In this document: positions 1-20,542 of the stretch, in pieces
Position numbering within the stretch: position 1 is the first letter of the stretch
How the letters are laid out: every line of letters begins with the position of its first letter
IMG/VR virus record: IMGVR_UViG_3300026484_000603
Location: 1 to 21,099 of that record
Reading direction: 5' to 3' (one strand)
Source: a virus
DNA length: 21,099 bases
Program-made: the position numbers and the translations under genes
Notes under the pieces: generated by a model
What the model was told of the DNA's origin: nothing
Seen by the model: the letters and a program-made list of their open reading frames with translations, nothing else
Database searches by the model: none

Positions 1-507
1 TATTATGCAAAAGGTTATGTAGGGTTTAGTGGTAATTTTGGTGCATATTTAATGCAATTTGGTAAAGCAAAAGATAAATTTATTCCGAAAGAAATAAAAG
101 AATTAGATACTAAATATTTATGGAAATTTTTAGAGGCTTTTGTTAGTTGCGACGGATATATAAGACCTCAAAAAGATTTTAAGGGATATAAAAACAAACC
201 TGAATATCTTTTTTACACTTCAAGCAAGAGGTTAGCGGATGATTTAGGAGAACTTATTTTAAAATGCGGTTATCAGCCAAGTTTTTACTTACAAAAAGTG
301 AAAGGTAAAGAAATTGAATTTAGAAATGGAAAATATACAATAAATGAAGATATTTGGGTAATAAGACTTAAAAGAAGCAAAAATGCAAATGTGAGTAATT
401 TAGAAATTAAAGAGGTTAAGTATAATGATTTGGTTTATTGTGTAGAACTTGAAGAATATAATATTTTATGGGTTAGAAGAAACGGAAAAACTTGTTTTAG
501 TGGTAAT
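1..507 (+). other. Intein, C-terminal part (second LAGLIDADG motif and C-terminal splicing motif)
   Basis: Residues 23-54 read as the linker and second LAGLIDADG helix of a homing endonuclease: KFIPKEI, then FLEAFVSCDGYI with the acidic residue at D51. Residues 137-170 match intein motifs F and G: VYCVELEEYNILWVRRNG, then FSGN followed by Cys. Splicing would cut after Asn169, with Cys170 as the +1 nucleophile. The penultimate residue is Gly instead of the common His, as in several phage inteins carrying the VRRNGK-x-GN ending. The His often seen in motif F is Asn here. The N-terminal splicing half and first LAGLIDADG motif lie upstream of the window. Function follows from the family: self-excision from the precursor protein, and possibly homing into intein-free alleles. 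Confidence 0.87.
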
Positions 508-1173
508 TGTTACTGCATTTATACGCCTTATTACAGAAAAGTAAAAGGCAAACGCAAAAAATGGAAAACGGCAGTTAAAGAGACGATGAGTAAATTTAAC
601 GAGAAAAAACAGATTGAGATACTCGGAAGCCGTGAGAAGCTTATGAGGTTTAAAAACGGGGAGGATATTGAAAAGATTTTTAACGCTATAAGACCGAAAT
701 ATCCGATTAAAAAGTATGTGGATGTGTTTGGATATAATTTTAAAATGGATAGTTACAAAAAAGACTTAATAAAATTTATTGAGGAAATTAAAAGCAAAAA
801 TATAAAAAGAAACGAAGTTGTTATTGGGGAATTTGAAAAGGAAATTATAGAATTTTTACAAAAAAAAGGAATAGAAAACAATCAAGAAATATTTTTAAGT
901 GTGAGAAGATATTTTCACATAGTAAGAGATTTCAAAAAATCAAAAAACAAAGCAATCCCTGAAAATATCATTGAAAAATTTCCTATTTATTTAGCAAATC
1001 CGTTAAAAGTATATTTTGATAATCATAAGAAACATAAAAATTTAATTTTCATTTTTGGATATGAAAAAAAATTATTCAAAATAGCAGTAAATCCATCAGG
1101 TGAAATAGTTACAGCTGGTAATGTTAATATAGGAAATTTTAAAGAAGATATTTTTGAAGAAATTGGGCGGTAA
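1..1173 (+). CDS. Minor head protein (Mu F / SPP1 gp7 type) interrupted by a LAGLIDADG intein; 5' end outside window
   Basis: The reading frame is open from base 1, so the gene starts upstream and the Met codon at 52 is internal. Counting from base 1, residues 1-169 are the end of an intein and 170-390 are the C-extein. The C-extein opens with Cys170-Tyr-Cys172 followed by IYTPYY, which fits the Cys-x-Cys motif ending the Mu F head-morphogenesis domain; in that family this minor capsid protein lies near the portal inside the head. After a basic stretch, the last 70 or so residues (from about 318, with IPENIIEKFPIYLANP) look like the small nuclease-like domains (PBECR group) often fused to Mu F proteins. 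The region from about 720 onward is visibly more AT-rich than 508-700, as if the C-terminal domain had been added. The portal gene faces it on the other strand. The head assignment is inferred because the Mu F core lies outside the window. Confidence 0.72.
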   Translation, partial: YYAKGYVGFSGNFGAYLMQFGKAKDKFIPKEIKELDTKYLWKFLEAFVSCDGYIRPQKDFKGYKNKPEYLFYTSSKRLADDLGELILKCGYQPSFYLQKVKGKEIEFRNGKYTINEDIWVIRLKRSKNANVSNLEIKEVKYNDLVYCVELEEYNILWVRRNGKTCFSGNCYCIYTPYYRKVKGKRKKWKTAVKETMSKFNEKKQIEILGSREKLMRFKNGEDIEKIFNAIRPKYPIKKYVDVFGYNFKMDSYKKDLIKFIEEIKSKNIKRNEVVIGEFEKEIIEFLQKKGIENNQEIFLSVRRYFHIVRDFKKSKNKAIPENIIEKFPIYLANPLKVYFDNHKKHKNLIFIFGYEKKLFKIAVNPSGEIVTAGNVNIGNFKEDIFEEIGR

Positions 1174-1238
1174 AGGTGGGAGTCGAACCCACTCTAACAG
1201 GCAAATAGCCTACCATCCCGATGTGGCCTCATTACCGC
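1164..1238 (-). tRNA. tRNA-like gene, isotype undetermined, with abnormal acceptor and anticodon arms
   Basis: Read leftward, the element has a canonical T arm (1192-1176: stem GTGGG/CCCAC, loop TTCGACT). It also has a four-pair D stem (GCCA/TGGT, one G-T pair) with an 8-base loop CATCGGGA at 1227-1212. The ends pair over 8-9 bases (GCGGTAATG with CTTTACCGC, one T-T mismatch), followed by an encoded CCA at 1166-1164. A standard tRNA has seven acceptor pairs. The anticodon arm best folds as TAGGC/GCCTG around only five bases (TATTT). Forcing a seven-base loop leaves a four-pair stem and anticodon ATT, an unlikely decoder. Length is about that of a tRNA. A strong promoter sits just upstream, and the 3' end overlaps the stop codon of the facing head gene. 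It may be a divergent phage tRNA, a decaying one, or a tRNA mimic. Confidence 0.5.
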
Positions 1239-1247
1239 TCTAATGCT

Positions 1248-1276
1248 ATTATATATTAATTTTTAGTTTTTTTCAA
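1248..1276 (-). promoter_or_regulatory. Sigma70-type promoter for the tRNA-like gene
   Basis: On the minus strand TTGAAA (1276-1271) is followed after exactly 17 bases by TATAAT (1253-1248). Transcription should start about seven bases later, near 1241, almost at the 5' end of the tRNA-like element. The -35 box overlaps the portal stop codon. A dedicated promoter suggests the RNA is made independently of the portal operon. Confidence 0.7.
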
Positions 1277-2568
1277 GATTCCTTAAAACTATCCTCAATC
1301 TCCTGTGAAATCTCATCAAAATTATCCACGTCAATCGTATTAAGATCGTTACTGATAATTTGAAGGGCTTTTAGTTTAAAGTATGTAGGGGAATTTACAA
1401 GCTGTTTCATTTCGCTTAATATGCCGATTTCTTTTTCGATGTCGATGATGTTGAAGTTTTTAGGGTAAAGTATATCGACGTCGTTTTTAATATTAAGATA
1501 CCTGCATACAACTTCAAACGCTCTTAATTCTAAATCTTCAAGCCTGAGTGAGAAATTTGAAAGCGAGGCGTTAAGCCCCTGAAATTTAATATCAAGCGCA
1601 ATGCCGCTTTCCTGTTTTTCGTTTGTAGATATATCAAAGGCGATTTTATCGATTTGTGTTTCGATGTCTTTTATTTTTTGTTGATAAATTTCCGCAGGTG
1701 CGGCAGGCGGGGCTATGTATTCGGGTTTATTAAATTCCTTGCCGTAAATTATTGCGTTGTCGGTAGAGAGTTTTACTTCAACATCGCTTGCGGTGTCGGC
1801 GTTGAGTGTTAGGATAGAAAAAGTCTGTCCCCTTAGTATTTCGTCAAGTTCGCTTTGTAGGTTGTAATGCCTCTTTGCAAGCGCGGCGATTTGCGTAAAT
1901 TCTCCTGTTGCGGGGAATTCACCTGTTTCGGAGAAGATTAACACAGGGCAAACTCCGAGGTTATGATCCCCGCTTTCGATTACCTTATCGGTGTCTTCGG
2001 CGTCTAATATTTTCCAGCTTTGCTTATCGTAGTATCTTATAACTTCTTTTATATCCTGCTTTTGCATTGTGGAGTTATCTATAACATCAGAAAAAGCTAC
2101 ATATTCAAACTTGCCTGTGTTGTCGAGTTTAAAAGCTACAAGCCTCTCAGGCGCTATTTCGGTAAAGTAAGGCAGTGAGCGGGTCTGTATCTGTTCGGCA
2201 AGGGTTGCGGGTATGTTTTTAGGCATATCGACTAAAAGCAAATTAACGCCTCGAACTTTTGCGTGTTTTGCAAAATTAGACATAAAAACGTCTATACTGT
2301 CGCCTTTATTATTTACGTCGTCAAAAATCATTCTTATCAGGTTATTGGCGCTGTTTCGGGTAGGAGTTTGTTTAAAAAGATAACCTGTGTATCTGTTTAT
2401 TTTGCTTGAAAAGATGTTTGTGTAATAGGCTATTTTTTGCCTCTCTTTATACTTTTCATCGTTTTCACGGGGGTATTTGTCTATATATTCGCCTGTTAAA
2501 AATCCTCCGCTTCCCTCATACGATTCGTTTGCAAATTCCCATATTTTTGTTGCAGTTGATAAGTCCAT
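1273..2568 (-). CDS. Portal protein (DUF4055 type)
   Basis: This 431-residue protein would form the ring at the head vertex through which DNA enters and to which the tail attaches. The N-terminal pattern (residues 1-70: an aromatic-rich start, GGFLTGEYIDKYPREND, then ERQKIAYYTNIFSSKINRYTG) is typical of DUF4055 portal proteins, as is the later LLLVDMP. The length fits the family. The start ATG overlaps the upstream stop by one base (TAATG) and follows an AAGGAG ribosome site. It is the last gene of a leftward four-gene unit with the head-tail joining genes. Portals usually lie upstream of, and parallel to, the minor head and scaffold genes, so the opposite orientation is unusual. The fold is inferred from pattern recognition and not from an alignment. 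Confidence 0.75.
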   Translation of the reverse strand: MDLSTATKIWEFANESYEGSGGFLTGEYIDKYPRENDEKYKERQKIAYYTNIFSSKINRYTGYLFKQTPTRNSANNLIRMIFDDVNNKGDSIDVFMSNFAKHAKVRGVNLLLVDMPKNIPATLAEQIQTRSLPYFTEIAPERLVAFKLDNTGKFEYVAFSDVIDNSTMQKQDIKEVIRYYDKQSWKILDAEDTDKVIESGDHNLGVCPVLIFSETGEFPATGEFTQIAALAKRHYNLQSELDEILRGQTFSILTLNADTASDVEVKLSTDNAIIYGKEFNKPEYIAPPAAPAEIYQQKIKDIETQIDKIAFDISTNEKQESGIALDIKFQGLNASLSNFSLRLEDLELRAFEVVCRYLNIKNDVDILYPKNFNIIDIEKEIGILSEMKQLVNSPTYFKLKALQIISNDLNTIDVDNFDEISQEIEDSFKES

Positions 2569-3014
2569 TAACTCTCCTTAAATATTTTGTCTATTTTTGC
2601 AAATGTTTTTTTTGCTGCTTTATGTAAAAAGTCGTCTCCTTCATAGCCCGGATGGTGAACACATTTGTTATCAAATCTGAATCTGTCGAGTTTAGAAAAA
2701 ATCCTTAAATATTTTCTGTTTTTAGGACAGATTAAATGCGGTCTTGTCCCAAACAGCACGAAAGTCGCATAATTTATCCTTTTGCCTCTCCAGCTAACAA
2801 GCATATCGTCGTTTGCTATCCAAACAATGCCCGCACCGCCTTTTGTTTTCATTAAGATATTTCGGTGCAGCGTTCCTTTAATAAAATGTTTTTTAGCTTT
2901 GTTTTTTGCTTCTTTATGCACGGCTTTTGTTATGTCTTTTATCATTTGTGAAGTTTCGGTCATTTTATCCAATGTTTCGAATATTTTTTTGGTGTCGTCT
3001 ATTTTAATTCGCAT
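2568..3014 (-). CDS. HK97 gp10-like head-tail joining / minor tail protein
   Basis: The protein has 148 residues. An N-terminal helical, lysine-rich part precedes the family signature: YATFVLFGTRPHLICPKN near the middle, then HHPGYEGDDFLHKAAKKTF close to the C-terminus. That arrangement (YA..V..GT.PH.I.PK, then HPG....FL..A) is characteristic of HK97 gp10-like proteins, which act at the head-tail interface or tail completion step. It starts 11 bases inside the upstream tail-terminator candidate and its stop overlaps the portal start, so the genes are probably translationally coupled. Its company with other connector genes agrees with the assignment. Confidence 0.72.
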   Translation of the reverse strand: MRIKIDDTKKIFETLDKMTETSQMIKDITKAVHKEAKNKAKKHFIKGTLHRNILMKTKGGAGIVWIANDDMLVSWRGKRINYATFVLFGTRPHLICPKNRKYLRIFSKLDRFRFDNKCVHHPGYEGDDFLHKAAKKTFAKIDKIFKES

Positions 3015-3387
3015 TGCAAAGCCCTATTATCTTAAATTTAATAATTCCGGCTTTAAGATTAACAAGCCTGTCCTCGTCTGTAATAGACGTAATAAGCTCT
3101 ATTTTATAAGGTAGCTTAAAAAGCGACATTTTAGTAGTGTATTCGGCTGCAAAAAATTCCTCATACAGTTTTTCATAATCGTTTTTTGTGTTAAAAGCGA
3201 TAACGATGCTTAAATGCAAATCAATCAAAGCCCCCCTGTGCTCAATCTCATCTACGATAATCCGTGCAAAAGGGCAGTTAATCGCTTTATCCGCTCCCTT
3301 TTCAAGACCGAGTTTGACTGATTTGTAGATGCTAAGGCTTTGTATAAGCTCTTTTACGTTGTGTAAGACAGGCACGATGTCAATCAT
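3004..3387 (-). CDS. Probable tail-terminator / neck protein
   Basis: A 127-residue protein without a decisive motif. It has an N-terminal helix (about residues 1-25), then alternating beta-rich segments such as LHLSIVIAF and YKIELITSI, and ends with FKIIGLC. This size and alpha-then-beta pattern fits tail-terminator proteins that cap the tail tube and bind the neck. Its position between an adaptor candidate and the gp10-like gene, as in many siphovirus connector clusters, supports that reading. The start lies directly after the stop of the 99-residue gene (TAAAATG). Assignment rests mainly on context. Confidence 0.5.
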   Translation of the reverse strand: MIDIVPVLHNVKELIQSLSIYKSVKLGLEKGADKAINCPFARIIVDEIEHRGALIDLHLSIVIAFNTKNDYEKLYEEFFAAEYTTKMSLFKLPYKIELITSITDEDRLVNLKAGIIKFKIIGLCNAN

Positions 3388-3388
3388 T

Positions 3389-3688
3389 TTAACCTCTTTG
3401 TATAGTGATGTTTTTAATGTTTATAATCGAGTTGTTGTTTTTCGCGAGATTGTAGTAGTGTTCGTATTCAGAGCGGTAAATATCGTATTTTGCTTTCATT
3501 CCGTCCGCTTCGAGACTTCTTTTTGCAAGTTGCATATAAACCCTGCATTTTGTAAGCTTTTCTTTGTAATAATCATCCGCAATGTTTAGTTTATTTAATA
3601 CGAAACCGTATTCTTCCGCCTCAATATTTTCAAGCTCGCTTTCGTCTATATAAGATGTTAAAAATTCGTCTTCATACGAATAAATCAT
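3389..3688 (-). CDS. Probable head-tail adaptor protein
   Basis: The first gene of the leftward unit encodes 99 residues, strongly acidic at the N-terminus (YEDEFLTSYIDESELENIEAEE cut into short runs by aromatic residues) and helical throughout. Small helical proteins of this size at this place in the gene order (adaptor, terminator, gp10-like) are commonly the adaptors that bind beneath the portal. A ribosome site (AGGCGG) lies just before the ATG. Upstream is the divergent promoter region shared with the scaffold gene. No family motif is certain, so the function is inferred from context. Confidence 0.45.
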   Translation of the reverse strand: MIYSYEDEFLTSYIDESELENIEAEEYGFVLNKLNIADDYYKEKLTKCRVYMQLAKRSLEADGMKAKYDIYRSEYEHYYNLAKNNNSIINIKNITIQRG

Positions 3689-3707
3689 TTTCCGCCTTTT
3701 TTAGTTT

Positions 3708-3744
3708 ATTTTACTTCTTATCTATTGCGGTTTTTTCCAAAAAA
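3708..3744 (-). promoter_or_regulatory. Candidate late promoter for the leftward head-tail unit
   Basis: On the minus strand a T-tract, GG (3738-3737) and an A-tract are followed 25 bases on by TAAAAT (3713-3708), then AAACTAAAAAAGGC and the start codon. About 80 percent of the bases from GG to ATG match the region before 11560. The tract overlaps the rightward copy of the motif, so one element may serve both directions. Confidence 0.5.
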
Positions 3745-3766
3745 CAGACTTTAAAGATTTTACAAT
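3731..3766 (+). promoter_or_regulatory. Candidate late promoter for the scaffold-capsid-tail unit
   Basis: TTTTTTCCAAAAAACA (3731-3746) is followed by TACAAT (3761-3766), the hexamer starting 24 bases after the first C. No TTGACA-like -35 box is present at the usual spacing. The same layout, with the -10-like hexamer at the same offset, recurs at 15296. The GGGAGG ribosome site before 3789 lies downstream. Confidence 0.5.
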
Positions 3767-3788
3767 TAGCAAAACACGGGAGGTGTAA

Positions 3789-4397
3789 ATGTTAAAAATT
3801 TTAAAAAAACTGCTTGAGGCAGGAAAAATCAGTGAAGAAGCGGCAAAAGAAATAGATGCGGATTTGAGTGTAGAACTTAAAAAGTTAAGAGACGAAGCAG
3901 CGGAGTGGAGAGTAAAGTATAAAGAGCTTAACGAAACATACGAAGAGGTTGCAAGCTCTAAAAATTCGCTTGAAGAGCAGTTAAAAAGCCTTGATGAGAG
4001 AATTGCAAAGGCAAAAGAAGAAGGAAAAGCCGAACTTGTTGCACAGCTTGAGGCTCAGAAAAAAGAAAAAGAGGAACTGACAAACAAATTGCAACAGTTG
4101 GAGTTGTCAAGTAAAACTTTACGACTTGAAAATGCCTTAAATAAAGCGTTGAGCGCTTATGAAGCAATTGACCCTGAGGTTGTAGCGGAGGTTATTAAAC
4201 AAAGAGTAGATGTGATAGACGGTGAAGTTAAGTTTAAAGACGGAAGAAGCCTTGATGACGGAATTAAGGAATTTTTTGAAAGCAAGCCGCACCTTTTGAA
4301 AGCAAAAGGAAACGAAGGAAGCGGTGCTGGAAGCAACAGCGGGACAGGATTTAAGGAAGATACCTTAACAGCGCAGTTATTAAAAAAATTACAATAA
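3789..4397 (+). CDS. Capsid scaffolding protein (phage GP20 / DUF4355-like)
   Basis: A 202-residue, highly charged protein. Residues 1-110 are heptad-like coiled coil rich in Glu and Lys. Next comes ALSAYEAIDPEVVAEVIK (about 120-137), then DGRSLDDGIKEFFESKPHLL, a glycine/serine linker and a short helical tail ending in TAQLLKKLQ. This order is typical of GP20-type scaffolds: the coiled coil organises the procapsid, and the C-terminal helix binds the coat protein. The gene lies directly upstream of the major capsid gene, as expected. It opens the rightward unit, with a clear GGGAGG ribosome site. Confidence 0.85.
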   Translation: MLKILKKLLEAGKISEEAAKEIDADLSVELKKLRDEAAEWRVKYKELNETYEEVASSKNSLEEQLKSLDERIAKAKEEGKAELVAQLEAQKKEKEELTNKLQQLELSSKTLRLENALNKALSAYEAIDPEVVAEVIKQRVDVIDGEVKFKDGRSLDDGIKEFFESKPHLLKAKGNEGSGAGSNSGTGFKEDTLTAQLLKKLQ

Positions 4398-4407
4398 GGA
4401 GCAATAA

Positions 4408-5382
4408 ATGGCTAAAATACAATTACAAGATTTGTTTCAGGCAACTTTATGGACGAATGATGTTTTAAACGAAGCGCCTGAGCTTAAAAATATACTAAAT
4501 TCGCCTTTAATTATTACAAGCCCTGATTTACAAAGCGTAGTAAACGCTGCAAATGCGGGCAGCAGGTTTGAAATGCCTTATATAGACGAGCCTGATTACA
4601 CAGAGCCTGAGGCGATGGACGACAGCGATGACGAAATTACTACAAATAAACTCATTTGGGCTAATATGTTTGCGGTGCTTGGGCTTTATTCAAAAGGATA
4701 CAAATATTCACATTTAGCGGCGCTTTTAACAAGAGATAGCGACCCGGCAAAAGTAATTAGAGATGTTATCGGTAATTACTGGGGTAGAGATTTACAAAGA
4801 AGAATGATTAACATTTTAGTAGGTATTTCCAAAAAAGCGGGAACTGATTTAACGCTTAATGTTAATGATACTATCGGTGCAAGTGTAATAATCGACGGTG
4901 CAAGTTTGCTTGGCGACCATCAGGACAAGTTTGAAGAGATGTTTGTGCATTCTAAAATTTATGCGGATTTGAAAAAACAAAACCTGATTGAAACATTGCC
5001 GCCAAGCGAAGAGGGAGCAAAACCTATTGAAATGTATGGAAAATATAAAGTAACGGTAAACGATTTAATGCCTGTTGAAGAAGACGCAGACGGAAACAAA
5101 CACTATACATCAATTATCGCACAAAGAGGTATTTTTGCATTCGCACAGAAAAAACTCGGCGGGGATATGCCTTTGATTGAGTTAGACAGAAATCCAAGAG
5201 CCGGTAAAGGAAGCGGGAATACAACCGTTATAAGCAGACAGGGGTTTGTATTGCATCCGGTAGGCTGGAGCTGGAAAAAATCAGGAATGAGCCCGACGCT
5301 TACAGATTTAGCAAAAGACACAAACTGGGAGAAAAAATTCCAGACAAAACAACAGAGATTTGTAAAAATCGTAACCAAATAA
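4408..5382 (+). CDS. Major capsid protein
   Basis: The 324-residue coat protein follows the scaffold by ten bases, with an AAGGAG ribosome site. The sequence shows an N-terminal segment starting MAKIQLQDLFQATLW, a central helix with DVIGNYWGRDLQRRMINIL (about residues 118-136) and a C-terminal half containing RQGFVLHPVGWSW. These resemble HK97-fold coat proteins of siphoviruses and podoviruses that use a separate scaffold. No protease gene is seen, which fits a coat assembled on a GP20-type scaffold. Position and size make the role nearly certain, although the exact family is not resolved here. Confidence 0.88.
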   Translation: MAKIQLQDLFQATLWTNDVLNEAPELKNILNSPLIITSPDLQSVVNAANAGSRFEMPYIDEPDYTEPEAMDDSDDEITTNKLIWANMFAVLGLYSKGYKYSHLAALLTRDSDPAKVIRDVIGNYWGRDLQRRMINILVGISKKAGTDLTLNVNDTIGASVIIDGASLLGDHQDKFEEMFVHSKIYADLKKQNLIETLPPSEEGAKPIEMYGKYKVTVNDLMPVEEDADGNKHYTSIIAQRGIFAFAQKKLGGDMPLIELDRNPRAGKGSGNTTVISRQGFVLHPVGWSWKKSGMSPTLTDLAKDTNWEKKFQTKQQRFVKIVTK

Positions 5383-5392
5383 GGAGTAAATA

Positions 5393-6157
5393 ATGGCGGT
5401 TAACAGAAATTTTGCGGATAACTATTATATCGGCGGCGGAGAGCTTTACATAAAAATAAAAGGTGAGGATAATTTTAGGTATTTCGGGCAGACGGAAAGC
5501 GCAAGCGTAAATTTTAACGTTGAAAAAGTTGAACATCAAAACAGCGAAGGTGCTATTCTTACAACTGACTTGGAAGTTACAAAGGCGGTAAGTGCGGAAA
5601 TAAGCATTCAGACAGCCGACCTTAACCCTACGGCACTTGCTCTTGCGTTCAGCGGAGAATATATCGAAACCACACAGGCAAGTGCTACGGGTGTTGAAGT
5701 TGATTTAACAAACGTTCAGGCCGGATTGGTTTATGAATTAGGCAAAAGAAAAGTTAAAAACGTTGTAGTTACATATAACGACGGAACGGAAGATGTTGCG
5801 GCGGTTGAAAACGTGGATTACAGTGTAGATTATGAATTCGGAACTATTGAAATTGCAAAAGACGGTGTGCTGGTAAACAAAGATATAAAAGTAACATTTG
5901 ACAACGATGCGGTTACTGTCGGACAGTTTACGACATTAAATAAAACAAGCCAGGAAGTTGCTTTAAGATTTATTTCAAAACCTTTACATGGGAAACCGAG
6001 CAAAACGGATATTTTCAGGGCAAATCTATCGCTTGACGGGGATTTTGCGCTTAAATCTGCGGAAGATATTCAGAAAATTACCCTTAAAGGAAAAGTGCTT
6101 AAAGACGAAACAAGACCGGAAGGACAGCAATTCTTAGTTAAAGAGGTAATCGCATAA
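5393..6157 (+). CDS. Major tail (tube) protein with an internal Ig-like insertion
   Basis: The 254-residue protein begins GGGELYIKIKGEDNFRYFG and continues with beta-rich TESASVNFNVEKVEHQNSEG, as in many siphovirus tail-tube proteins. The end returns to the tube pattern with FRANLSLDGDFALKSAED and ITLKGKVL. Residues from about 95 to 180 look like an inserted beta-sandwich (VYELGKRKVKNVVVTYNDG and later FGTIEIAKDG). Tube proteins stack as hexamers into the tail. It lies between capsid and tail-chaperone genes, its normal place, and its stop overlaps the chaperone start by one base (TAATG). No sheath gene accompanies it, so the tail is probably non-contractile. Confidence 0.8.
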   Translation: MAVNRNFADNYYIGGGELYIKIKGEDNFRYFGQTESASVNFNVEKVEHQNSEGAILTTDLEVTKAVSAEISIQTADLNPTALALAFSGEYIETTQASATGVEVDLTNVQAGLVYELGKRKVKNVVVTYNDGTEDVAAVENVDYSVDYEFGTIEIAKDGVLVNKDIKVTFDNDAVTVGQFTTLNKTSQEVALRFISKPLHGKPSKTDIFRANLSLDGDFALKSAEDIQKITLKGKVLKDETRPEGQQFLVKEVIA

Positions 6158-6426
6158 TGAAATTTTACAGAGAAAAAAAAGTCCTTAAATTTGACGATTT
6201 GGAAGTAGAGATTTACGAAATAAATGTAAAATCTCTTATTAAACTTGCAAACAAAGAGTATAAGAACAATTACGAGCTTATTGCAGACAATTCAAACCTC
6301 TCATTTGAGGATTTGGAAAATGCGACAATAGAGGCTGCAAAAACTATTGAAGAGGCTTTTTTTGAATTAAACGCTAAACATTTTGACGAGAAGGGAGAAA
6401 GCAAAACCGATAAAAAAAAATCCTAA
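6157..6426 (+). CDS. Tail assembly chaperone, short form (gpG-like)
   Basis: This 89-residue acidic, helical protein lies between the tail-tube gene and the tape measure gene. That is where phages encode the chaperone that coats the tape measure during tail assembly. It ends in a lysine-rich tail read from nine consecutive A's, then Ser and stop. A second open frame in the -1 register starts at that run and continues to 6653, so this is the unshifted product of a G/GT-style pair. No catalytic motif is expected. The start overlaps the tube gene's stop. Confidence 0.75.
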   Translation: MKFYREKKVLKFDDLEVEIYEINVKSLIKLANKEYKNNYELIADNSNLSFEDLENATIEAAKTIEEAFFELNAKHFDEKGESKTDKKKS

Positions 6427-14817: not shown

Positions 14818-15171
14818 ATGCTAATAAAATCAAATCAAATTCAGGAAAATAAAACCCCTCTATATACTGGTGTATTTGAAATTGGCCGAAAAGGTGAGAG
14901 CAAAGAGATAACGGATAATTTTATAACAAATGAAACTATTGCTGCATTAAGAGCGACATCCGAATTTTTAGAAAATGGATACAATAAACAGGAAGTGGAG
15001 TTTAGCACTTATTTTGCACCTTTAAAGATTAACAACATTATCGAAGTTTATGCCCCGACTTACAGAATACCGAAAGACCTTACAAAAACAAGGTTTATCG
15101 TTAAAAAGATAACGCATTATTTCAAAGACGGGGTTATTAAAACGAAAATAAAGGCGGTGCGATATGATTAA
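14818..15171 (+). CDS. Small tail hub-related protein (C-terminal hub-like domain)
   Basis: The 117-residue protein resembles the C-terminal part of larger tail hub proteins: LKINNIIEVYAPTYRIP, then FIVKKITHYFKDG and a closing IKAVRYD. In such proteins this domain is normally fused to the hub body. Here it follows the 475-residue hub gene but is separated from it by the 229-residue gene, so the hub seems to be built from separate chains. It starts two bases after the previous stop. The role is inferred from motif resemblance and position. Confidence 0.45.
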   Translation: MLIKSNQIQENKTPLYTGVFEIGRKGESKEITDNFITNETIAALRATSEFLENGYNKQEVEFSTYFAPLKINNIIEVYAPTYRIPKDLTKTRFIVKKITHYFKDGVIKTKIKAVRYD

Positions 15172-15295
15172 AGAGTTTAACAGACTGATTGAAAAACAGA
15201 TAAGAAAATCGCAGAAAACAAATGAATATAAAAAAATAGTTAAAATCAAAGAACAAAATATGCAAACAATTAAATTAAAAAGCCTCTCTTTCTAA
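15164..15295 (+). CDS. Small basic protein, 43 aa, unknown
   Basis: An ATG at 15164 overlaps the previous gene by eight bases and opens a 43-codon frame ending TAA at 15293-15295. The product is strongly basic and helical (MIKEFNRLIEKQIRKSQKTN at the start, KLKSLSF at the end). A GGCGG ribosome-like site lies 6-7 bases before the ATG, and the frame fills the space before the next promoter region. I cannot assign a function. Confidence 0.5.
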   Translation: MIKEFNRLIEKQIRKSQKTNEYKKIVKIKEQNMQTIKLKSLSF

Positions 15296-15331
15296 TTTTT
15301 CCCAAAAAACAATCTTTTAATCCTTTATTAT
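15296..15331 (+). promoter_or_regulatory. Candidate late promoter before the fibre genes
   Basis: TTTTTCCCAAAAAACA (15296-15311) is followed by TATTAT (15326-15331), 24 bases after the second C of CCC. Around 28 of the first 37 bases match the region starting at 3731, with the -10-like hexamer at the same offset of 30. The next start codon is the GTG at 15353, after AAAAAAAGGCTT. Confidence 0.5.
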
Positions 15332-15352
15332 TTAAATAAAAAAAGGCTTACT

Positions 15353-15595
15353 GTGGCGACAAGAAATATAAAAGTTACAAACACTTGGCAAAAAGTCGGA
15401 AACGGAGAAGTGGTTGTAATACAAAACAGAGGACTTGAATATGTAGAAGTGGCGATCGTGAAAAACGGGGAAACGCCGGAATCGGGGTTTATGTTGGGTA
15501 ATTATGAAGTTTTTAGTTATTCGGGTGGAGATGAAGTGTGGGTAAAGTGCGTAAGAGGAAGCACAAATATTATTATAGACAATGTGGGGGTTTAA
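15353..15595 (+). CDS. Small beta-rich tail-associated protein, GTG start
   Basis: This 80-residue protein is all-beta in appearance (VTNTWQKVGNGEVVVIQNRG, YVEVAIVKNGETP, a final NIIIDNVGV). It starts at GTG preceded by AAGGCTT. It resembles short structural proteins that precede fibre genes in several phages, though I know no exact function. It is the first gene after a candidate late promoter, and the following fibre gene starts one base after its stop. Confidence 0.45.
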   Translation: MATRNIKVTNTWQKVGNGEVVVIQNRGLEYVEVAIVKNGETPESGFMLGNYEVFSYSGGDEVWVKCVRGSTNIIIDNVGV

Positions 15596-15596
15596 A

Positions 15597-16049
15597 ATGG
15601 ATATTGTTTATCCTGTAAGCGGTAACGGGGCGGTGATTGATGATAATGCAATAGCTACAAATAAAACTTGGAGTTCAGATAAAATTAATTCAGAATTTGC
15701 AGAATTAAAAAGCGATGCTCCTATTTTGTCTTTACCTGCAAACGCAAACGAAAATACTAACGTAACGATAACAATAACAAATTATAAGGATAATACGGAT
15801 TACTATTTTAATACGGACGCAGGAGATATTAATTATAACGGGGGCAATACCGCTACATTAACTACAAAAGAAGTTGAAGAAGATACACAATTTGCAGTTA
15901 CTTGTTATGCGGTTGAGGCGGGTAAAACGAGAAGTGATACGACAACTAAAAATATAACTGTTTTAAACGTTCCTGTGGTAGTGGACGGAAGTATAAATAA
16001 TGCAGATTTTGACGCAAACGCTGACGCAAATGACGGATTTGAATATTAA
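15597..16049 (+). CDS. Tail fibre-type protein with Ig-like domain
   Basis: The chosen ATG at 15597 follows GGGGG at good spacing; an in-frame ATG five codons upstream would lie inside the previous gene. The product has about 150 residues. Residues 10-36 (AVIDDNAIATNKTWSSDKIN) match a short motif common at the N-termini of phage fibre proteins. The centre (NVTITITNYKDNTDYYFN to TQFAVTCYAVEAGKT) reads like an Ig or fibronectin-type beta-sandwich, a frequent decoration on phage tails. It is followed ten bases later by the LamG-domain gene, probably its functional partner in receptor binding. Confidence 0.55.
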   Translation: MDIVYPVSGNGAVIDDNAIATNKTWSSDKINSEFAELKSDAPILSLPANANENTNVTITITNYKDNTDYYFNTDAGDINYNGGNTATLTTKEVEEDTQFAVTCYAVEAGKTRSDTTTKNITVLNVPVVVDGSINNADFDANADANDGFEY

Positions 16050-16058
16050 GGAGAACAA

Positions 16059-17330
16059 ATGAAAGCAACAAAAGATAATGCAACATATTTGGAAAAGATT
16101 GTTACACAAGACGATGGTGATAGTGATTTTGAAAAAGTTACAGATACGACAGTAAACCATATTCCAAACGAAATATTTTTGCTTGACACTACAACCAATA
16201 CACAGTTGGAAAGTGAAGATGAGTTAATAGAAAATGAAGAAGTATTGTTGATTGACGCAGATAACAATATTACTGAAACACAGCTTGGTTCTGTAACAAC
16301 AGGAATAATAGACACAACACAAACACTTGATATTTTTAATGACAACTCTTGTGTGGCTTGTTATCCATTTGATAATGAAACTGCTAATGATTTAAGTGGA
16401 AATTATGACGGAACTATTAATAATGTATCATTTGATAATGGTAAATTTGGAAAAGCAGTTAAAAGGAGCACATCCGATAGAGAGAATCATATAATTTTCT
16501 CTGAATCTGGTATCGATTGTATAAGCAATAGTGACATTTTTACATTAAGTTTTTGGGCAAAAATACCATCGCTTTCTGATTATAGTTATAACAATAATTC
16601 TTCATTTATGATTTTTGGAGCCGGAACAGGATATGATCAAGGGAATTGTGGTAATAGATCAAGAAATATTGGTTTTTCTTATTTTGATGGAAATTTTTCT
16701 GATATTCAATATTTTGAACAACCAGATGATGGAACTCCTTGTGGAGGGGGCAACCAAAGACAATTAAGCTTTGGAATAAAGCCTGACTCTATTTTTCACC
16801 ATTTTGTTGTAATAAAAAATGGAGCTAATGTTAAACTATATTTAGATAATGTTTTAGTGAATGAAGCATCAAACACTTTTACAAATAAAACAGGTATGAA
16901 ATATGTTACAGCACTGAGTAAAGGATTTGCAATACATTCAAATAGTTTATCTTCTCCAGGACTCATAGACCAAGTTCGTATATTTAATCGCACACTTACC
17001 AATGATGAAGTAGATGCATTATATAATGAACAGATAACAAAATACATAGCAGACATATCATCTGCAAACCTGTCAGAAGCTCCTGCAAAAGCCTTTAAAA
17101 AACAAACACCTTCTGTAAGAATAGCAATAGAAGCTACCGAAGCAGATATAACAGATACAAGCTTCAATGATTTAACTCCTGAAACAACGACTTATGACGG
17201 GTCTAAATTCACAACCGTATATTCTGATTTAGCAAAAGAAGGTAGATATATTCAAAGAAAAATAGTGGCTCCTAATAAAGGAATACAGGTTATAGAACCT
17301 TTTATATCAAACTTATGGAAGAAAGGGTAA
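16059..17330 (+). CDS. Receptor-binding tail protein with LamG (concanavalin-like) domain
   Basis: A 423-residue protein. Residues 1-85 are acidic and probably an attachment stalk. Residues about 96-330 follow the LamG/concanavalin A-like pattern: CVACYPFDNETANDLSGNYD, FTLSFWAKIP, VKLYLDNVLVNEAS, then GLIDQVRIFNRTLTNDEVDA. These jelly-roll domains bind sugars or surface structures. Residues 340-423 form a C-terminal part with many Thr and Asp. The segment 16330-17050 uses fewer GCG, CGG and similar codons than its neighbours, which suggests exchange of the binding domain. An AGGAG site precedes the ATG. The adhesin role is a family-based inference. Confidence 0.68.
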   Translation: MKATKDNATYLEKIVTQDDGDSDFEKVTDTTVNHIPNEIFLLDTTTNTQLESEDELIENEEVLLIDADNNITETQLGSVTTGIIDTTQTLDIFNDNSCVACYPFDNETANDLSGNYDGTINNVSFDNGKFGKAVKRSTSDRENHIIFSESGIDCISNSDIFTLSFWAKIPSLSDYSYNNNSSFMIFGAGTGYDQGNCGNRSRNIGFSYFDGNFSDIQYFEQPDDGTPCGGGNQRQLSFGIKPDSIFHHFVVIKNGANVKLYLDNVLVNEASNTFTNKTGMKYVTALSKGFAIHSNSLSSPGLIDQVRIFNRTLTNDEVDALYNEQITKYIADISSANLSEAPAKAFKKQTPSVRIAIEATEADITDTSFNDLTPETTTYDGSKFTTVYSDLAKEGRYIQRKIVAPNKGIQVIEPFISNLWKKG

Positions 17331-17333
17331 CAA

Positions 17334-17738
17334 ATGAAATATGAGATAAAAGAAACGGTAACAACAAAAGACGGATTGTATTATAAAAAAGCGATACAGG
17401 AAATTCCCGTGGCTTCCGAAAGTGAAAACATCAAAAAAGGTTTAGCAAGAAAACGTATACAAGAAGAAGTGTTTGATTTGCCTGACAGTATCGCAGATAA
17501 CGCAAAGATGATTTCTCTTTTAATGTCTGTGGTTAAAAGAGTTTATGAGGCGTTACCCGCAACGACTAAAAACAAAATTAAAGACAAGGATATGATTGAA
17601 GGTGTGATTAAAGTTTTCGACAACATACAAACCTTAGCAGACGTTCAGTTTGCACAAGAGGGCGACGTAATGATACAAAAAATATTTAACAGACAGTCCG
17701 AAATAGGAAAAATTGTTAAGGATATTTACAATGCTTAA
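17334..17738 (+). CDS. Unknown protein after the receptor-binding gene
   Basis: The 134-residue protein is not recognised. It has a short beta-rich N-terminus (EIKETVTTKDGLYYKKAIQE) and then mostly helices (AKMISLLMSVVKRVYEALPA and on to IGKIVKDIYNA). It starts three bases after the LamG gene stop and overlaps the next gene by eight bases. Small proteins after receptor-binding genes are sometimes fibre-assembly chaperones, but nothing in the sequence confirms this. Confidence 0.45.
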   Translation: MKYEIKETVTTKDGLYYKKAIQEIPVASESENIKKGLARKRIQEEVFDLPDSIADNAKMISLLMSVVKRVYEALPATTKNKIKDKDMIEGVIKVFDNIQTLADVQFAQEGDVMIQKIFNRQSEIGKIVKDIYNA

Positions 17739-18063
17739 ATATTCTAATTTTAAATTACAACCTTTACGAAATCATAGGTTTAAACTTTTAGAAAAAGTTA
17801 AATATAAAGATTTAACAATTCCAAAAAATTTTAGGACAGACGGAGCGACAATTCCGAGATTGTTTTGGAGTATATATCCGCCGAACCGCACAGATTATTT
17901 GCCGTGCGCGATAATTCACGATTATTTGTGCGATAAAGGAGAATATAAAAAGGCGGATAAATACTTTAAAGAATGTTTAAAAGAGATAAACGTTTCAAAA
18001 TTTACGAGATGCGTTTTTTATTACGCAGTGAGAATATATCACAAAAGCAAATACAAGCAATAG
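17731..18063 (+). CDS. DUF1353-family phage protein
   Basis: From the ATG at 17731 (AAGGAT eight bases upstream) the protein has 110 residues; an upstream TTG would add six residues and is less likely. The DUF1353 signature is clear: TDGATIPRLFW at residues 36-46 and AIIHDYLCDKG at 60-70. The family is widespread in phages near lysis and tail genes. Its biochemical role is not established, and the conserved His-Asp suggests a possible enzymatic or metal-binding site. The next gene, the holin, has its ribosome site directly after this stop. Confidence 0.78.
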   Translation: MLKYSNFKLQPLRNHRFKLLEKVKYKDLTIPKNFRTDGATIPRLFWSIYPPNRTDYLPCAIIHDYLCDKGEYKKADKYFKECLKEINVSKFTRCVFYYAVRIYHKSKYKQ

Positions 18064-18071
18064 GGGGAAAG

Positions 18072-18434
18072 ATGCCGTTAAAAAATTTGAATGATTTAAA
18101 CGTTTTTACAACAATAGTTGTAGGACTTTTCGGGGTTTGGGGGGCGTTTCTTAATTATATACGAAGACACGAAACACAAAAAGACCTTACAAAAAATCAA
18201 AAAATAACTTATTTTTTTACAGATTTTGCAAGTTCAACCGGGCTTGCAATGCTTACGTATATTGCCTTGCAAGGCTGGGGTGTTAATGAGCTTCTAAGCG
18301 TTGCTTGTGCGGGTTTTGTGTCGCATCAGGGAACCCGTGCGATTTATGTCGCACAGATAGTTATAGCCGAAAAGTTAGGTCTTAACAGAACAATAGACAC
18401 AATCAAAGAAGAACACGAAAAGGAGAACAAATGA
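18072..18434 (+). CDS. Holin (phage holin superfamily III-like)
   Basis: The chosen ATG at 18072 follows GGGGGAAAG; a longer in-frame start would overlap the previous gene by 90 bases. The 120-residue product has hydrophobic segments at about 10-29 (VFTTIVVGLFGVWGAFLNYI), 50-70 and 74-98 (ELLSVACAGFVSHQGTRAIY), and a charged C-terminal tail. Three membrane spans with a central G-x-x-G/H-region before an Ala-rich helix resemble the HP1/LydA holin group. Holins open the inner membrane so that the lysozyme reaches the cell wall. The next genes are spanins and lysozyme. Its stop overlaps the spanin start (ATGA). Confidence 0.72.
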   Translation: MPLKNLNDLNVFTTIVVGLFGVWGAFLNYIRRHETQKDLTKNQKITYFFTDFASSTGLAMLTYIALQGWGVNELLSVACAGFVSHQGTRAIYVAQIVIAEKLGLNRTIDTIKEEHEKENK

Positions 18435-18703
18435 GCGGAATAGCTGAAATAATTGTAACTGTTTTAATAGCCGCATCAATTATGTTTTACATGTATATAC
18501 AAAATCTACAAGACACAAAAAAAGATTTAGAAAAACAGGTAAAACAAAAACAGTCTGAAATAGTTAGAGAAAAAACAAAAGGCAATATAAAAGCGTTTGA
18601 GGCGAGACAAAAAGCGAAAAAAGAAGTTTTGAAAAAGCAGAGAAAGGACAAAAATGAAAGCAAAATTGATACTTCTGTCGGCCCTCATACTCTTTATTTT
18701 TAG
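18431..18703 (+). CDS. Inner-membrane spanin (Rz-like)
   Basis: The 90-residue protein has one N-terminal membrane segment (residues about 5-22, IIVTVLIAASIMFYMYIQ) and then a Lys/Glu/Gln-rich periplasmic coiled coil to residue 78. This is the architecture of i-spanins, which span the periplasm with a lipoprotein partner to disrupt the outer membrane. The nested lipoprotein gene at 18654 in another frame supports the assignment. Start: an AAGGAG site and ATG overlapping the holin stop. No sequence family was recognised; the call rests on architecture and context. Confidence 0.7.
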   Translation: MSGIAEIIVTVLIAASIMFYMYIQNLQDTKKDLEKQVKQKQSEIVREKTKGNIKAFEARQKAKKEVLKKQRKDKNESKIDTSVGPHTLYF

Positions 18704-18854
18704 CGGTTGTGTAAAAAAAGAGTATGTGTATGTAAAAATACCTTGCCCGAAGTTACAGACTTATGAAGTAAATACGAGTAAAAATAAGCATTTTACGATA
18801 CATTATTTTATAAAGGATACAAATGCAAGCAAAAATAAAAACGCAGACAACTAA
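18654..18854 (+). CDS. Outer-membrane spanin lipoprotein (Rz1-like), overlapping the i-spanin gene
   Basis: The 66-residue protein has a signal peptide (MKAKLILLSALILFIFSG) ending in a lipobox whose Cys is residue 19, so a mature lipoprotein of 48 residues. The mature part starts with VKKEYVYVKIPCPKLQTY, a pattern seen in short Rz1-type proteins. The first 50 bases lie within the i-spanin gene in a different frame, the hallmark arrangement of Rz/Rz1 pairs. An AAAGGA ribosome site precedes the ATG. It would bind the i-spanin across the periplasm at the last step of lysis. Confidence 0.8.
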   Translation: MKAKLILLSALILFIFSGCVKKEYVYVKIPCPKLQTYEVNTSKNKHFTIHYFIKDTNASKNKNADN

Positions 18855-19011
18855 AACAATAGAAATGCCCCTGTGCGAATTTGAAGAGCTTATAAAAGAA
18901 TTGCAACAGTGCAAAAAAGAAAAAGCCGAACTTGAAAAAGCTAACAAATTCTTAAACGAACAAATAAAAGAATACAACGAAAAATTTGCAAAGGACACAA
19001 GTGAACATTAA
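18823..19011 (+). CDS. Small coiled-coil protein in lysis cassette
   Basis: A 62-residue protein. From residue 17 to 55 it is a heptad-like helix (ELIKELQQCKKEKAELEKAN), with no signal peptide or membrane segment. It overlaps the end of the o-spanin gene by 32 bases and the lysozyme start by 11 bases, with an AAAGGA ribosome site. Tight packing and a good ribosome site argue that it is real. The role is unknown; a regulator of lysozyme or a structural helper are both possible. Confidence 0.55.
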   Translation: MQAKIKTQTTKTIEMPLCEFEELIKELQQCKKEKAELEKANKFLNEQIKEYNEKFAKDTSEH

Positions 19012-19405
19012 AGATTTTATAATTAAACACGAGGGGCTTAAACTTAAACCGTATCTCTGTCCCGCAGGAAAACTCACAATCGGCGTAGGCAGAAATATAG
19101 AAGATAACGGCATTTCGGAAGATGAGGCGATGTATCTGCTTGAAAACGACATTAAAAGATGTGAATCTGAATTAAGAGAGATTTTTGAAGAGTTTAACCA
19201 TTTTCCCGACGCCGTCAAAATGGCTTTGATTGATATGATATTTAATCTCGGAAAAACAAGATTTTTAACCTTTAAAAAATTAATACAGGCGGTAAAAGAA
19301 GGTGATTTTAAACGAGCAGCGGAAGAGGCTAAAAATAGCAGGTGGTGCGGGCAGGTAGGCAACAGATGTGAGGATGTTTGCGAGATGTTAAATAACTTTA
19401 TATAA
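19001..19405 (+). CDS. T4-type lysozyme (endolysin, GH24)
   Basis: From the GTG at 19001 (AAAGGA six bases upstream) the protein has 134 residues, and its catalytic residues fall at the same numbers as in T4 lysozyme: Glu11, Cys20 (Asp in T4) and Thr26 in HEGLKLKPYLCPAGKLTIGV. The spacing Glu-8-Asp/Cys-5-Thr is that of GH24 muramidases, which cleave the glycan chains of peptidoglycan. Position 31, His in T4, is Arg. The C-terminus has RWCGQVGNRCEDVC, matching the family's W...NR region with extra Cys. There is no signal peptide or SAR segment, so export depends on the upstream holin. A TTG farther upstream is an unlikely start. Confidence 0.88.
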   Translation: MNIKDFIIKHEGLKLKPYLCPAGKLTIGVGRNIEDNGISEDEAMYLLENDIKRCESELREIFEEFNHFPDAVKMALIDMIFNLGKTRFLTFKKLIQAVKEGDFKRAAEEAKNSRWCGQVGNRCEDVCEMLNNFI

Positions 19406-19523
19406 ATAAACTTCGAAAGCTCTTTGTAGCTCCGGGTATTTTGTTTGGGAAACGAAGTTCTCCTTTCTCTTTATCTTCATAGTCAATTAGCAAATATTTC
19501 CCCTCTAATTTATTTAACTTCAT
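19398..19523 (-). CDS. Small protein, 41 aa, with hairpin-masked ribosome site
   Basis: A leftward ATG at 19523 opens a 41-codon frame to the TAA at 19400-19398, overlapping the lysozyme's last eight bases tail to tail. The product is charged and compact (MKLNKLEGKYLLIDYEDKEK to start, PGATKSFRSLFI to end). A strong GGAGGG site lies five bases before the ATG, buried in a hairpin at 19526-19546. The upstream 118-residue gene ends 30 bases away, so the two probably share a transcript. I know no family for it. Confidence 0.6.
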   Translation of the reverse strand: MKLNKLEGKYLLIDYEDKEKGELRFPNKIPGATKSFRSLFI

Positions 19524-19525
19524 TC

Positions 19526-19546
19526 AAACCCTCCGCAGAGGGCTTT
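19526..19546 (-). promoter_or_regulatory. Hairpin covering the ribosome site of the 41-aa gene; possible terminator
   Basis: On the minus strand AAA-G-CCCTC pairs with GAGGG-TTT around a TGCG loop (eight pairs, one bulged G), placing the GGAGGG ribosome site inside the stem. Read on the plus strand, the same hairpin follows the lysis genes and is trailed by a moderately T-rich CTTTGAGTTATTTAT, so it might also end that transcript. Confidence 0.55.
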
Positions 19547-19553
19547 GAGTTAT

Positions 19554-19910
19554 TTATATGGCCAAAAAAAATACTTTTCTTTTAGAATTAATATCGAATC
19601 TGCTATCTATCCATTTTTTAGCTTCACTTTCTTTTTCAAGTTTTACTATTTCTTCCTCAAGAGCTTTTTTGCCTTTTTCAAAAATTTCTTTATCATCCAT
19701 ATCTTCGTTTACAACTCCCTTAGAAATTAAATCCCTAAAAATTTTATCTGCTTCAAATACAAGTTCAGGCTCTTCTCTACTTAATTTGCTGTATTCTTCT
19801 TCGCTTATTCCCCAAACTTTATTCCAAAGTTTAAGCGCTTTTTTATTTTTTTCTATTGCTTGTTTTTGTAACTCTTCAGCCCATTTGATTTGTTTTTCTG
19901 TTCCTTTCAT
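19554..19910 (-). CDS. Unknown early protein with KGTEKQIKWAEE N-terminus
   Basis: A 118-residue, highly charged helical protein. The start MKGTEKQIKWAEELQKQAIE recurs in small phage and plasmid proteins of unknown function; the middle (WGISEEEYSKLS) and the end (KKWIDSRFDINSKRKVFFLA) add nothing diagnostic. It has an AAGGAG ribosome site and a perfect consensus promoter with an imperfect palindrome between its boxes, so it is probably strongly expressed and repressible. It diverges from the HTH-protein gene and precedes the 41-residue gene. Possible roles are control or early takeover. Confidence 0.6.
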   Translation of the reverse strand: MKGTEKQIKWAEELQKQAIEKNKKALKLWNKVWGISEEEYSKLSREEPELVFEADKIFRDLISKGVVNEDMDDKEIFEKGKKALEEEIVKLEKESEAKKWIDSRFDINSKRKVFFLAI

Positions 19911-19942
19911 TTTCAGCTCCTTTTTTGTTTTTCTATACTGCT

Positions 19943-19971
19943 ATTATACACCTATTTGGTATAAATGTCAA
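19943..19971 (-). promoter_or_regulatory. Consensus sigma70 promoter with palindromic operator-like site
   Basis: On the minus strand TTGACA (19971-19966) and TATAAT (19948-19943) are separated by exactly 17 bases, a perfect consensus promoter for the 118-residue gene. An imperfect inverted repeat (TATACACC, TATTT, GGTATA on the plus strand, 19945-19963) covers the spacer and -10, where a bound repressor would block transcription. Confidence 0.8.
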
Positions 19972-20031
19972 GAGTTTTTATATAAAATATGTATAAATTT
20001 GTAAAATTTTGTGAATTATATGTATTTATTA

Positions 20032-20063
20032 TGTTATAATTACACTAAATAAGTATAAGGAGG
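20032..20063 (+). promoter_or_regulatory. Extended -10 promoter and ribosome site for the HTH-protein gene
   Basis: TGTTATAAT (20032-20040) is an extended -10 element without a clear -35 box. AAGGAGG (20057-20063) is a strong ribosome site five bases before the ATG. Two near-identical ATATGTAT segments upstream (around 19988 and 20018) could be additional binding sites. Confidence 0.6.
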
Positions 20064-20068
20064 ATAAA

Positions 20069-20542
20069 ATGTTTAAAGTGCCTTTAAAAGAAATAGAAAG
20101 GAGATTTAATATCCCTTACCGCACTGTTCAAAATTTTAACGAAGCGGAAGGATACAGAAAAGAAGTCCTTAATATTTTTAGCGACCTTATCGTTTTAGAA
20201 GAGTTAGCTAAAAAAGATTTAGAAGAGCTTGGAGAGGTAAAACTCTCCTATATAAAAGAGGGGATAGATAATTATTTAACAGATATTCTACTGCATAAGC
20301 CCGAAAGTTTAAATCAGACGTTTGCAGAGCTTATAAGAGATAATAACAAAATAAAGGAGCTTACAGAAAATGCAATGCTACAGGACTTTTTAGAACCGGA
20401 GGAAATAAAAGCTACTTTATATAGAATAGATAAGCATTTAGACAAGTTGTCTCGCTATTTTCTCGTAAAAGAAAGATTCGAGGAAACTTACGATTACTTA
20501 AAAAGCGTAAAAAAAGAGGGTAAGCCTGTTTTAAAAGATTAG
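20069..20542 (+). CDS. HTH-domain protein, probable regulator
   Basis: A 157-residue protein starting with a helix-turn-helix-like segment (VPLKEIERRFNIPYRTVQNF, residues 4-23). The remainder is helical and acidic (LEELAKKDLEELGEVK, then ATLYRIDKHLDKLSRYFLVK). The N-terminal pattern suits a DNA-binding protein or a small-terminase-like HTH. The divergent strong promoter on its left, overlapped by a palindrome, makes a repressor or switch protein more likely. Its stop overlaps the stop of the facing zinc-knuckle gene. Confidence 0.5.
   Translation: MFKVPLKEIERRFNIPYRTVQNFNEAEGYRKEVLNIFSDLIVLEELAKKDLEELGEVKLSYIKEGIDNYLTDILLHKPESLNQTFAELIRDNNKIKELTENAMLQDFLEPEEIKATLYRIDKHLDKLSRYFLVKERFEETYDYLKSVKKEGKPVLKD

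What the first reader, a model, noticed from the sequence alone, without database searches (positions are those of the whole stretch)
1..510. Intein inserted at the Cys-x-Cys motif of a Mu F-type head protein
The intein ending (VRRNGK, then FSGN before Cys) and a LAGLIDADG motif are visible, and the C-extein starts with Cys-Tyr-Cys, probably the conserved end motif of the Mu F domain. Phage inteins are best known from terminases, replication proteins and nucleotide enzymes; a minor capsid protein is an uncommon home. Splicing could delay capsid assembly or make it conditional. The motif F His and the penultimate His are both replaced.
Basis: partly seen in the sequence, partly recalled or inferred. 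Interest (0 to 1): 0.72.

Follow-up and report, generated by a model that had tools for sequence, protein, structure and literature searches.

The report
Mobile intein in phage head protein
The start of this viral sequence is the back half of a self-splicing protein insert (an intein carrying a DNA-cutting domain) that sits inside a phage head-assembly protein, and related inserts turn up at exactly the same place in many other phages, so it is real and probably mobile, but an under-described example of a known thing rather than something new.

Summary
Confirmed. Window 1-507 is the C-terminal 169 residues of a class-1 intein with a LAGLIDADG endonuclease; 508-1173 is its C-extein. The window is a whole 21,099-base viral contig that starts inside the intein. 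A near-identical complete copy (L002) supplies the rest: MuF-type N-extein ending LPLHPH, a 341-residue intein starting CYDKDTEVYT, then CYCIYTPYY. Intein-free alleles show the exact empty site: L031 HPH|CYC; L003, Nitratiruptor phages NrS-1 and NrS-3 HPF|CRC. The AlphaFold model (pLDDT 94) matches intein-endonuclease crystal structures end to end (Z 21-26). It looks mobile: window and L002 differ at 1.4% of intein bases but 9% of adjacent extein bases (p = 4e-6).

"Uncommon home" is only partly right: of the 79 best relatives in viral contigs, 55 sit at the same His...|Cys junction and form one insertion-site lineage, also found in Aquificota, Acidobacteriota and Bacteroidota genome records. 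Inteins in Mu-like F/minor head proteins were reported in 2004 and 2020. Loss of the penultimate His is a family trait (58 of 59); loss of the block-F His too is rarer (10 of 59). Splicing is inferred, not shown; regulation of head assembly is speculation. New member of a known kind.

The parts
1..507 (+). C-terminal 169 residues of the intein (residues 173-341 of the 341-residue copy in L002): second half of the LAGLIDADG endonuclease and the C-terminal part of the splicing domain. The N-terminal 172 residues lie beyond the left end of the contig.
   Evidence: 98.6% DNA identity to L002:6246-6752; fold of the L002 copy; absent from empty alleles
121..162 (+). LAGLIDADG motif WKFLEAFVSCDGYI with its conserved Asp-Gly
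   Evidence: Pfam LAGLIDADG_3; Asp223 and Gly224 of the L002 numbering conserved across the family
433..507 (+). Splicing blocks F and G: VYCVELEEYNILWVRRNGKTCFSGN; Asn at the usual block-F His position, Gly at the usual penultimate His, terminal Asn at 505-507
   Evidence: Alignments of 9 and 19 relatives; residue counts over 59 distinct MuF-site inteins
508..516 (+). Splice junction and insertion site: +1 Cys and the CYC motif of the host protein
   Evidence: Empty alleles HPH|CYC in L031 and HPF|CRC in L003, NrS-1, NrS-3
508..735 (+). Conserved start of the C-extein of the MuF/head-morphogenesis protein (CYCIYTPYYRKVKGKRKKWK...IRPKYPIKKYVDV)
   Evidence: Alignment with L002, L003, NrS-1 and NrS-3; closest to intein-free L003, 94% DNA identity
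736..1173 (+). Variable C-terminal domain of the host protein, different from those of L002, L003 and NrS-1; weak resemblance to MuF_C (RNase-like) at about 934-1095
   Evidence: Pfam MuF_C E 0.012-0.021, below cut-off; no relatives found

Best explanation
A class-1 intein (Cys1 ... Asn, then Cys+1) with an apparently complete LAGLIDADG homing endonuclease is inserted in frame directly before the first Cys of the Cys-x-Cys motif of a phage MuF/SPP1-gp7-type head-morphogenesis protein. Inferred action: the precursor splices itself, joining ...LPLHPH to CYCIYTPYY..., and so restores a conserved Cys...His-Pro-x-Cys-x-Cys group (perhaps a metal site) that the insert splits; the endonuclease cuts intein-free alleles of co-infecting related phages and the intein is copied in by repair (homing). 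Shown: anatomy, precise empty sites, fold, one insertion-site lineage, and excess intein similarity between otherwise diverged genes. Inferred: splicing, endonuclease activity, the metal site, and the absence of a regulatory role.
For: Complete copy in L002 with N-extein, Cys1, block A (CYDKDTEVYT), block B (TNKH), two LAGLIDADG motifs, Asn341 and Cys+1. Exact empty sites in L031, L003, NrS-1, NrS-3. AlphaFold model pLDDT 94.4, aligned over 1-341 to TliVMA, PI-SceI and PI-PfuI inteins at Z 21-26. Host protein: PHROG head morphogenesis in the gene order of NrS-1. Mobility: intein 7/507 against extein 19/213 differences between window and L002, p 4e-6; L016 against L002 0/123 against 21/180, p 1e-5; L016's N-extein is closest to the empty allele L031. 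Constraint: 6 of 7 intein differences are synonymous. Same site in 55 of the 79 best viral relatives, 3 changes on the tree against 21 in shuffles.
Against: No splicing or cutting was observed. Both assisting histidines (block F and penultimate) are missing. The window holds only half the intein; blocks A, B and the first LAGLIDADG motif are read from L002 and in part L016. Pfam Phage_Mu_F does not match the host protein and TIGR01641 is below its cut-off.
Confidence: 0.93

Rival explanations
1. Regulatory intein: splicing responds to a condition (temperature, redox state, metal), so that head assembly, or use of the C-terminal domain, waits for it.
For: The insert splits an invariant Cys/His group, so the precursor should be inactive; the block-F and penultimate His are both missing, which could make splicing slow or conditional; the same idea was put forward for the Methylococcus Mu-like prophage (PMC517821).
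Against: Empty and occupied alleles coexist in closely related phages, so the intein is dispensable. Penultimate Gly or Ser is the family norm, and a phage intein with penultimate Gly splices faster than its His mutant (PMC5050341). Nothing ties splicing to a signal.
Confidence: 0.08
2. Autoprocessing HINT-like domain that cleaves rather than splices and releases the C-terminal, possibly toxic, domain from the head protein.
For: The host protein has a swappable C-terminal domain, and several relatives carry toxin-like domains (ADP-ribosyltransferase in 4 of 47, papain-fold toxin in 1).
Against: Terminal Asn and Cys+1 are both kept, the residues that ligation needs; empty alleles keep the same C-terminal domain classes without any processing domain (L002 resembles NrS-1, L003 resembles NrS-3); an intact homing endonuclease points to an intein.
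Confidence: 0.04
3. Dead or misassembled element: a decayed intein, or an assembly artefact at a contig end.
For: The contig begins inside the insert, and another contig (L016) ends inside it.
Against: Open frame, catalytic residues kept, mostly synonymous differences. L002 runs through the complete gene. The breaks fit collapse of a near-identical repeat: 126 and 125 bases shared with L002 at the two ends.
Confidence: 0.03

Closest known systems
Intein in F (Mu gp30) of the Mu-like prophage of Methylococcus capsulatus Bath (PMC517821, 2004)
   Same: Intein in the same kind of head protein of a Mu-like prophage; regulation of head morphogenesis was suggested there too
   Different: Described as lacking a recognisable endonuclease and most similar to archaeal IF-2 inteins; its insertion site was not compared here
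Intein in the minor head protein of the cryoconite Mu-like phage variant AB09 (PMC7468147, 2020)
   Same: Present in some variants and absent from others; a 0.8 kb insert with a homing endonuclease in a minor head protein
   Different: Sequence not held here; insertion site not compared
Mycobacteriophage inteins, in particular the RDF intein with penultimate Gly (PMC5050341, 2016)
   Same: Phage class-1 intein without the penultimate His; splices in the laboratory
   Different: Other host genes (terminase, RDF, RecB-like and others; no capsid protein mentioned); the window's intein also lacks the block-F His
Head morphogenesis proteins of Nitratiruptor phages NrS-1 and NrS-3
   Same: Homologous gene, same neighbours (terminase before it, reverse-strand structural genes after it), same Cys...His-Pro-x-Cys-x-Cys group
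   Different: No intein; junction reads HPF|CRC instead of HPH|CYC
MuF polymorphic toxins of temperate phages (PMC5576092, PMC5512222)
   Same: MuF-type N-terminal part with an exchangeable C-terminal domain; relatives carry ART and papain-fold toxin domains
   Different: Toxicity and an immunity gene are not shown here; those papers do not mention inteins in their main text

Membership tests
Intein, class 1 | Insert absent from homologous proteins at a precise position, in frame | tested here: met
   L031, L003, NrS-1, NrS-3 empty sites
Intein, class 1 | Cys/Ser at position 1, block B TxxH, terminal Asn, Cys/Ser/Thr at +1 | tested here: met
   Cys1, T66-x-x-H69, Asn341 and Cys+1 in the L002 copy; the window itself shows Asn and Cys+1
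Intein, class 1 | Block-F His and penultimate His (usual, not obligatory) | tested here: not met
   Asn and Gly instead; absence of the penultimate His is shared by 58 of 59 MuF-site inteins
Intein, class 1 | HINT splicing fold | tested here: met
   Model of the L002 copy: Z 21-26 to large inteins, 15-20 to mini-inteins
Intein, class 1 | Protein splicing in fact occurs | not testable with these tools
   Needs expression
LAGLIDADG homing endonuclease | Two LAGLIDADG motifs with acidic residues, and the fold | tested here: met
   FMGYWLSDG and FLEAFVSCDG in L002 (the second also in the window); Pfam LAGLIDADG_3 E 5e-8; fold
LAGLIDADG homing endonuclease | Cuts the intein-free allele | not testable with these tools
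   Only indirect: excess intein similarity between diverged genes
MuF / SPP1 gp7 head-morphogenesis protein | Match to Pfam PF04233 or NCBIfam TIGR01641 at the curated cut-off | tested here: not met
   No PF04233 hit; TIGR01641 E 0.013-0.046 only for NrS-3 and NrS-1
MuF / SPP1 gp7 head-morphogenesis protein | Similarity to phage head-morphogenesis families, position next to terminase, conserved Cys/His group | tested here: met
   PHROG 1657 and others, E to 4e-19; gene order; Cys233 and His259 invariant over 25 exteins; profile-profile probability 92%
MuF polymorphic toxin | Recognisable C-terminal toxin domain plus immunity gene | tested here: inconclusive
   Variable C-terminus; MuF_C-like match E 0.012, below cut-off; no relatives; no immunity gene identified

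The most novel reading that the evidence does not exclude
The intein controls a metal site: because it splits the conserved Cys/His group of MuF proteins and lacks both assisting histidines, splicing is gated by metal or redox state, and the gate decides when head assembly, or loading of the toxin-like C-terminal domain into the virion, can happen.
Probability: 0.06. Interest if true: 0.7.

Novelty: new member of a known kind. Interest (0 to 1): 0.36.

Why it matters
It shows that one intein lineage has made a head-assembly protein, not a replication enzyme, its main home in phages of distant bacteria. The MuF polymorphic-toxin papers read here do not mention inteins. Practical points: MuF genes with this insert will be mis-annotated or broken in metagenome assemblies, as here, and the paired empty and occupied alleles of these Nitratiruptor-phage relatives are a ready system for testing homing, and splicing without the usual histidines.

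Tried and rejected
AlphaFold of the MuF domain (L003, 300 aa) gave pLDDT 67 and no meaningful fold match, so the proposed metal site could not be checked in space. A PDB sequence search with the MuF profile found nothing. The window's variable C-terminal domain has no relative in phages or viral contigs. Kin of the genome could not be drawn because the window is a virus record. Aligning whole intein-plus proteins with intein-free ones puts the +1 Cys onto Cys1, and adding the full C-terminus misplaces the His, so exteins were aligned apart. The list of 58 His-junction loci includes two truncated loci and one without Cys+1 (L099); only the 55 complete junctions are counted, and a few of those are near-copies. 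Considered and dropped: a free-standing endonuclease fused to the gene (the splicing domain is present), and chance resemblance (fold and empty sites exclude it). A paper search for inteins with MuF gave nothing relevant. Whether the Methylococcus and cryoconite inteins share this insertion site was not tested.

Full report
The observation. The window is a complete viral record of 21,099 bases. Frame 1 is open from the first base to the stop at 1171-1173. Residues 1-169 carry a LAGLIDADG motif and the C-terminal blocks of an intein, ending VRRNGKTCFSGN; the next residue is the Cys of CYC. Because the contig begins inside the insert, the N-extein cannot be found in the window, and relatives were needed.

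The complete gene. A viral contig (L002, IMGVR_UViG_3300026484_000282) encodes an 832-residue protein: 261 residues of N-extein ending MRTLPLHPH, a 341-residue intein from CYDKDTEVYT to CFSGN, then CYCIYTPYYKKVKGKRK. Window 1-507 matches the last 169 residues of that intein with one amino-acid difference and 98.6% DNA identity.

Empty sites. L003 reads LPAHPF|CRCIYTPYY, L031 reads TPLHPH|CYCIYTPYY, and the annotated 'phage head morphogenesis protein' of Nitratiruptor phages NrS-1 and NrS-3 reads LPLHPF|CRCKY. The insert is therefore exactly one intein long and lies directly before the first Cys of the CxC motif.

Fold. An alignment of 19 related inteins gave a model of the L002 intein with mean pLDDT 94.4. 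The best solved structures are intein-endonucleases (TliVMA, PI-SceI, PI-PfuI), aligned over residues 1-341 with Z 21-26; mini-inteins and hedgehog HINT domains follow.

The host protein. Pfam Phage_Mu_F does not match it and TIGR01641 is below cut-off. PHROG head-morphogenesis families match at E 7e-13 to 4e-19, taking the best family of each protein. A profile comparison links it weakly (92%) to a set of exteins drawn from a collection in which 19 of 47 proteins match Phage_Mu_F. It lies after terminase, in the same order as in NrS-1. Across 25 exteins Cys233 and His259 are invariant; with Cys262 and Cys264 they look like a metal-binding group. The intein lies between His259 and Cys262, so splicing would complete the group. 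This is inference: the MuF model was too poor to test it.

Mobility. Window and L002 differ at 7 of 507 intein bases but at 19 of 213 adjacent extein bases (Fisher p 4e-6). L016, whose contig ends inside the intein, shares 123 of 123 intein bases with L002 but differs at 21 of the preceding 180 (p 1e-5). L016's N-extein is 94% identical to the empty allele L031 and 78% to L002. The window's codons at 508-516 (TGTTACTGC) match L002, while the C-extein that follows is closer to the intein-free L003 (94% over the stretch against 91%), as a short co-conversion tract would leave; this last point rests on few bases. Six of the seven intein differences are synonymous, which is unlikely without constraint (p 2e-4, or 0.008 if only transitions are allowed).

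Why the contig starts here. L016 ends after 126 bases shared with L002, and the window starts with 125. Window stretches 1273-6400 and 15000-21099 match L002's contig but not L016's. A simple reading is that one genome was broken at a segment nearly identical in two phages, and that L016's contig and the window are its two halves. This is not proven, and the N-extein of the window's own gene is therefore not known for certain.

How common. A profile scan found 223 related stretches in viral contigs; of the best 79, 55 have a complete junction of the type His...|Cys, 46 of them CxC. The genome scan found the same site in Aquificota, Acidobacteriota and Bacteroidota records; most are metagenome-assembled, so these names are of the bins. 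On a tree of 89 inteins the MuF site needs 3 changes against 21 in shuffles: a strongly clustered insertion-site lineage. The scan was seeded with MuF inteins, so the share of 55 in 79 describes the neighbourhood of this intein, not phage inteins at large. Other members sit in terminase, ThyX, a phage protease and other proteins, and two sit at another Cys site of MuF-like proteins (L029, L079).

The missing histidines. In 58 of 59 distinct MuF-site inteins the penultimate residue is not His; in 10 of 59, this one included, the block-F His is missing too. A mycobacteriophage intein with penultimate Gly splices, and slows when Gly is changed to His; the paper adds that a block-F His can take over the role (PMC5050341). 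The replacement is therefore no sign of death, but splicing without either residue deserves a test.

Function. The data are explained by a selfish homing element with a splicing domain that keeps its host protein working.

Known or new. Inteins in this kind of protein were reported in the Mu-like prophage of Methylococcus capsulatus in 2004 (PMC517821) and in the minor head protein of a cryoconite Mu-like phage in 2020 (PMC7468147). The case is a new member of a known kind. What seems undescribed in the open-licence literature searched is the breadth of the lineage at one site and its overlap with MuF toxin-type proteins; subscription papers were not searched.

Noticed in passing
window 1168-1236, - strand: tRNA-like sequence overlapping the 3' end of the host gene: Rfam tRNA 25.8 bits, below the gathering score of 29; ARAGORN finds no tRNA. 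Perhaps a tRNA remnant.
   Followed up: partly
window 20539-21099, - strand: Gene running off the right end, similar to HNH endonucleases (PHROG 1271, E 1e-11): possibly a second mobile element.
   Followed up: no
L016 (IMGVR_UViG_3300026484_000420), right end: This 21.6 kb contig ends 123 bases into the same intein and may be the other half of the window's genome; 393 intein bases lie between the two.
   Followed up: partly
L029 5001-7481; L079 4001-5257: Inteins at a different Cys site of MuF-like proteins (VT|CEDC in L029, KI|CMDF in L079); the one in L029 is a mini-intein without endonuclease.
   Followed up: no
L017 2504-2932: Mini-intein of about 130 residues without endonuclease at the same HPQ|CRC site.
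   Followed up: no
L023, L035, L046, L065: Members of the lineage that begin with Ser instead of Cys (HPN|SY...), with Cys at +1.
   Followed up: no
window 736-1173 against L002 and L003: The C-terminal domain of the host protein is swapped between close relatives: L002 resembles NrS-1, L003 resembles NrS-3, and the window has a third type without known relatives.
   Followed up: partly
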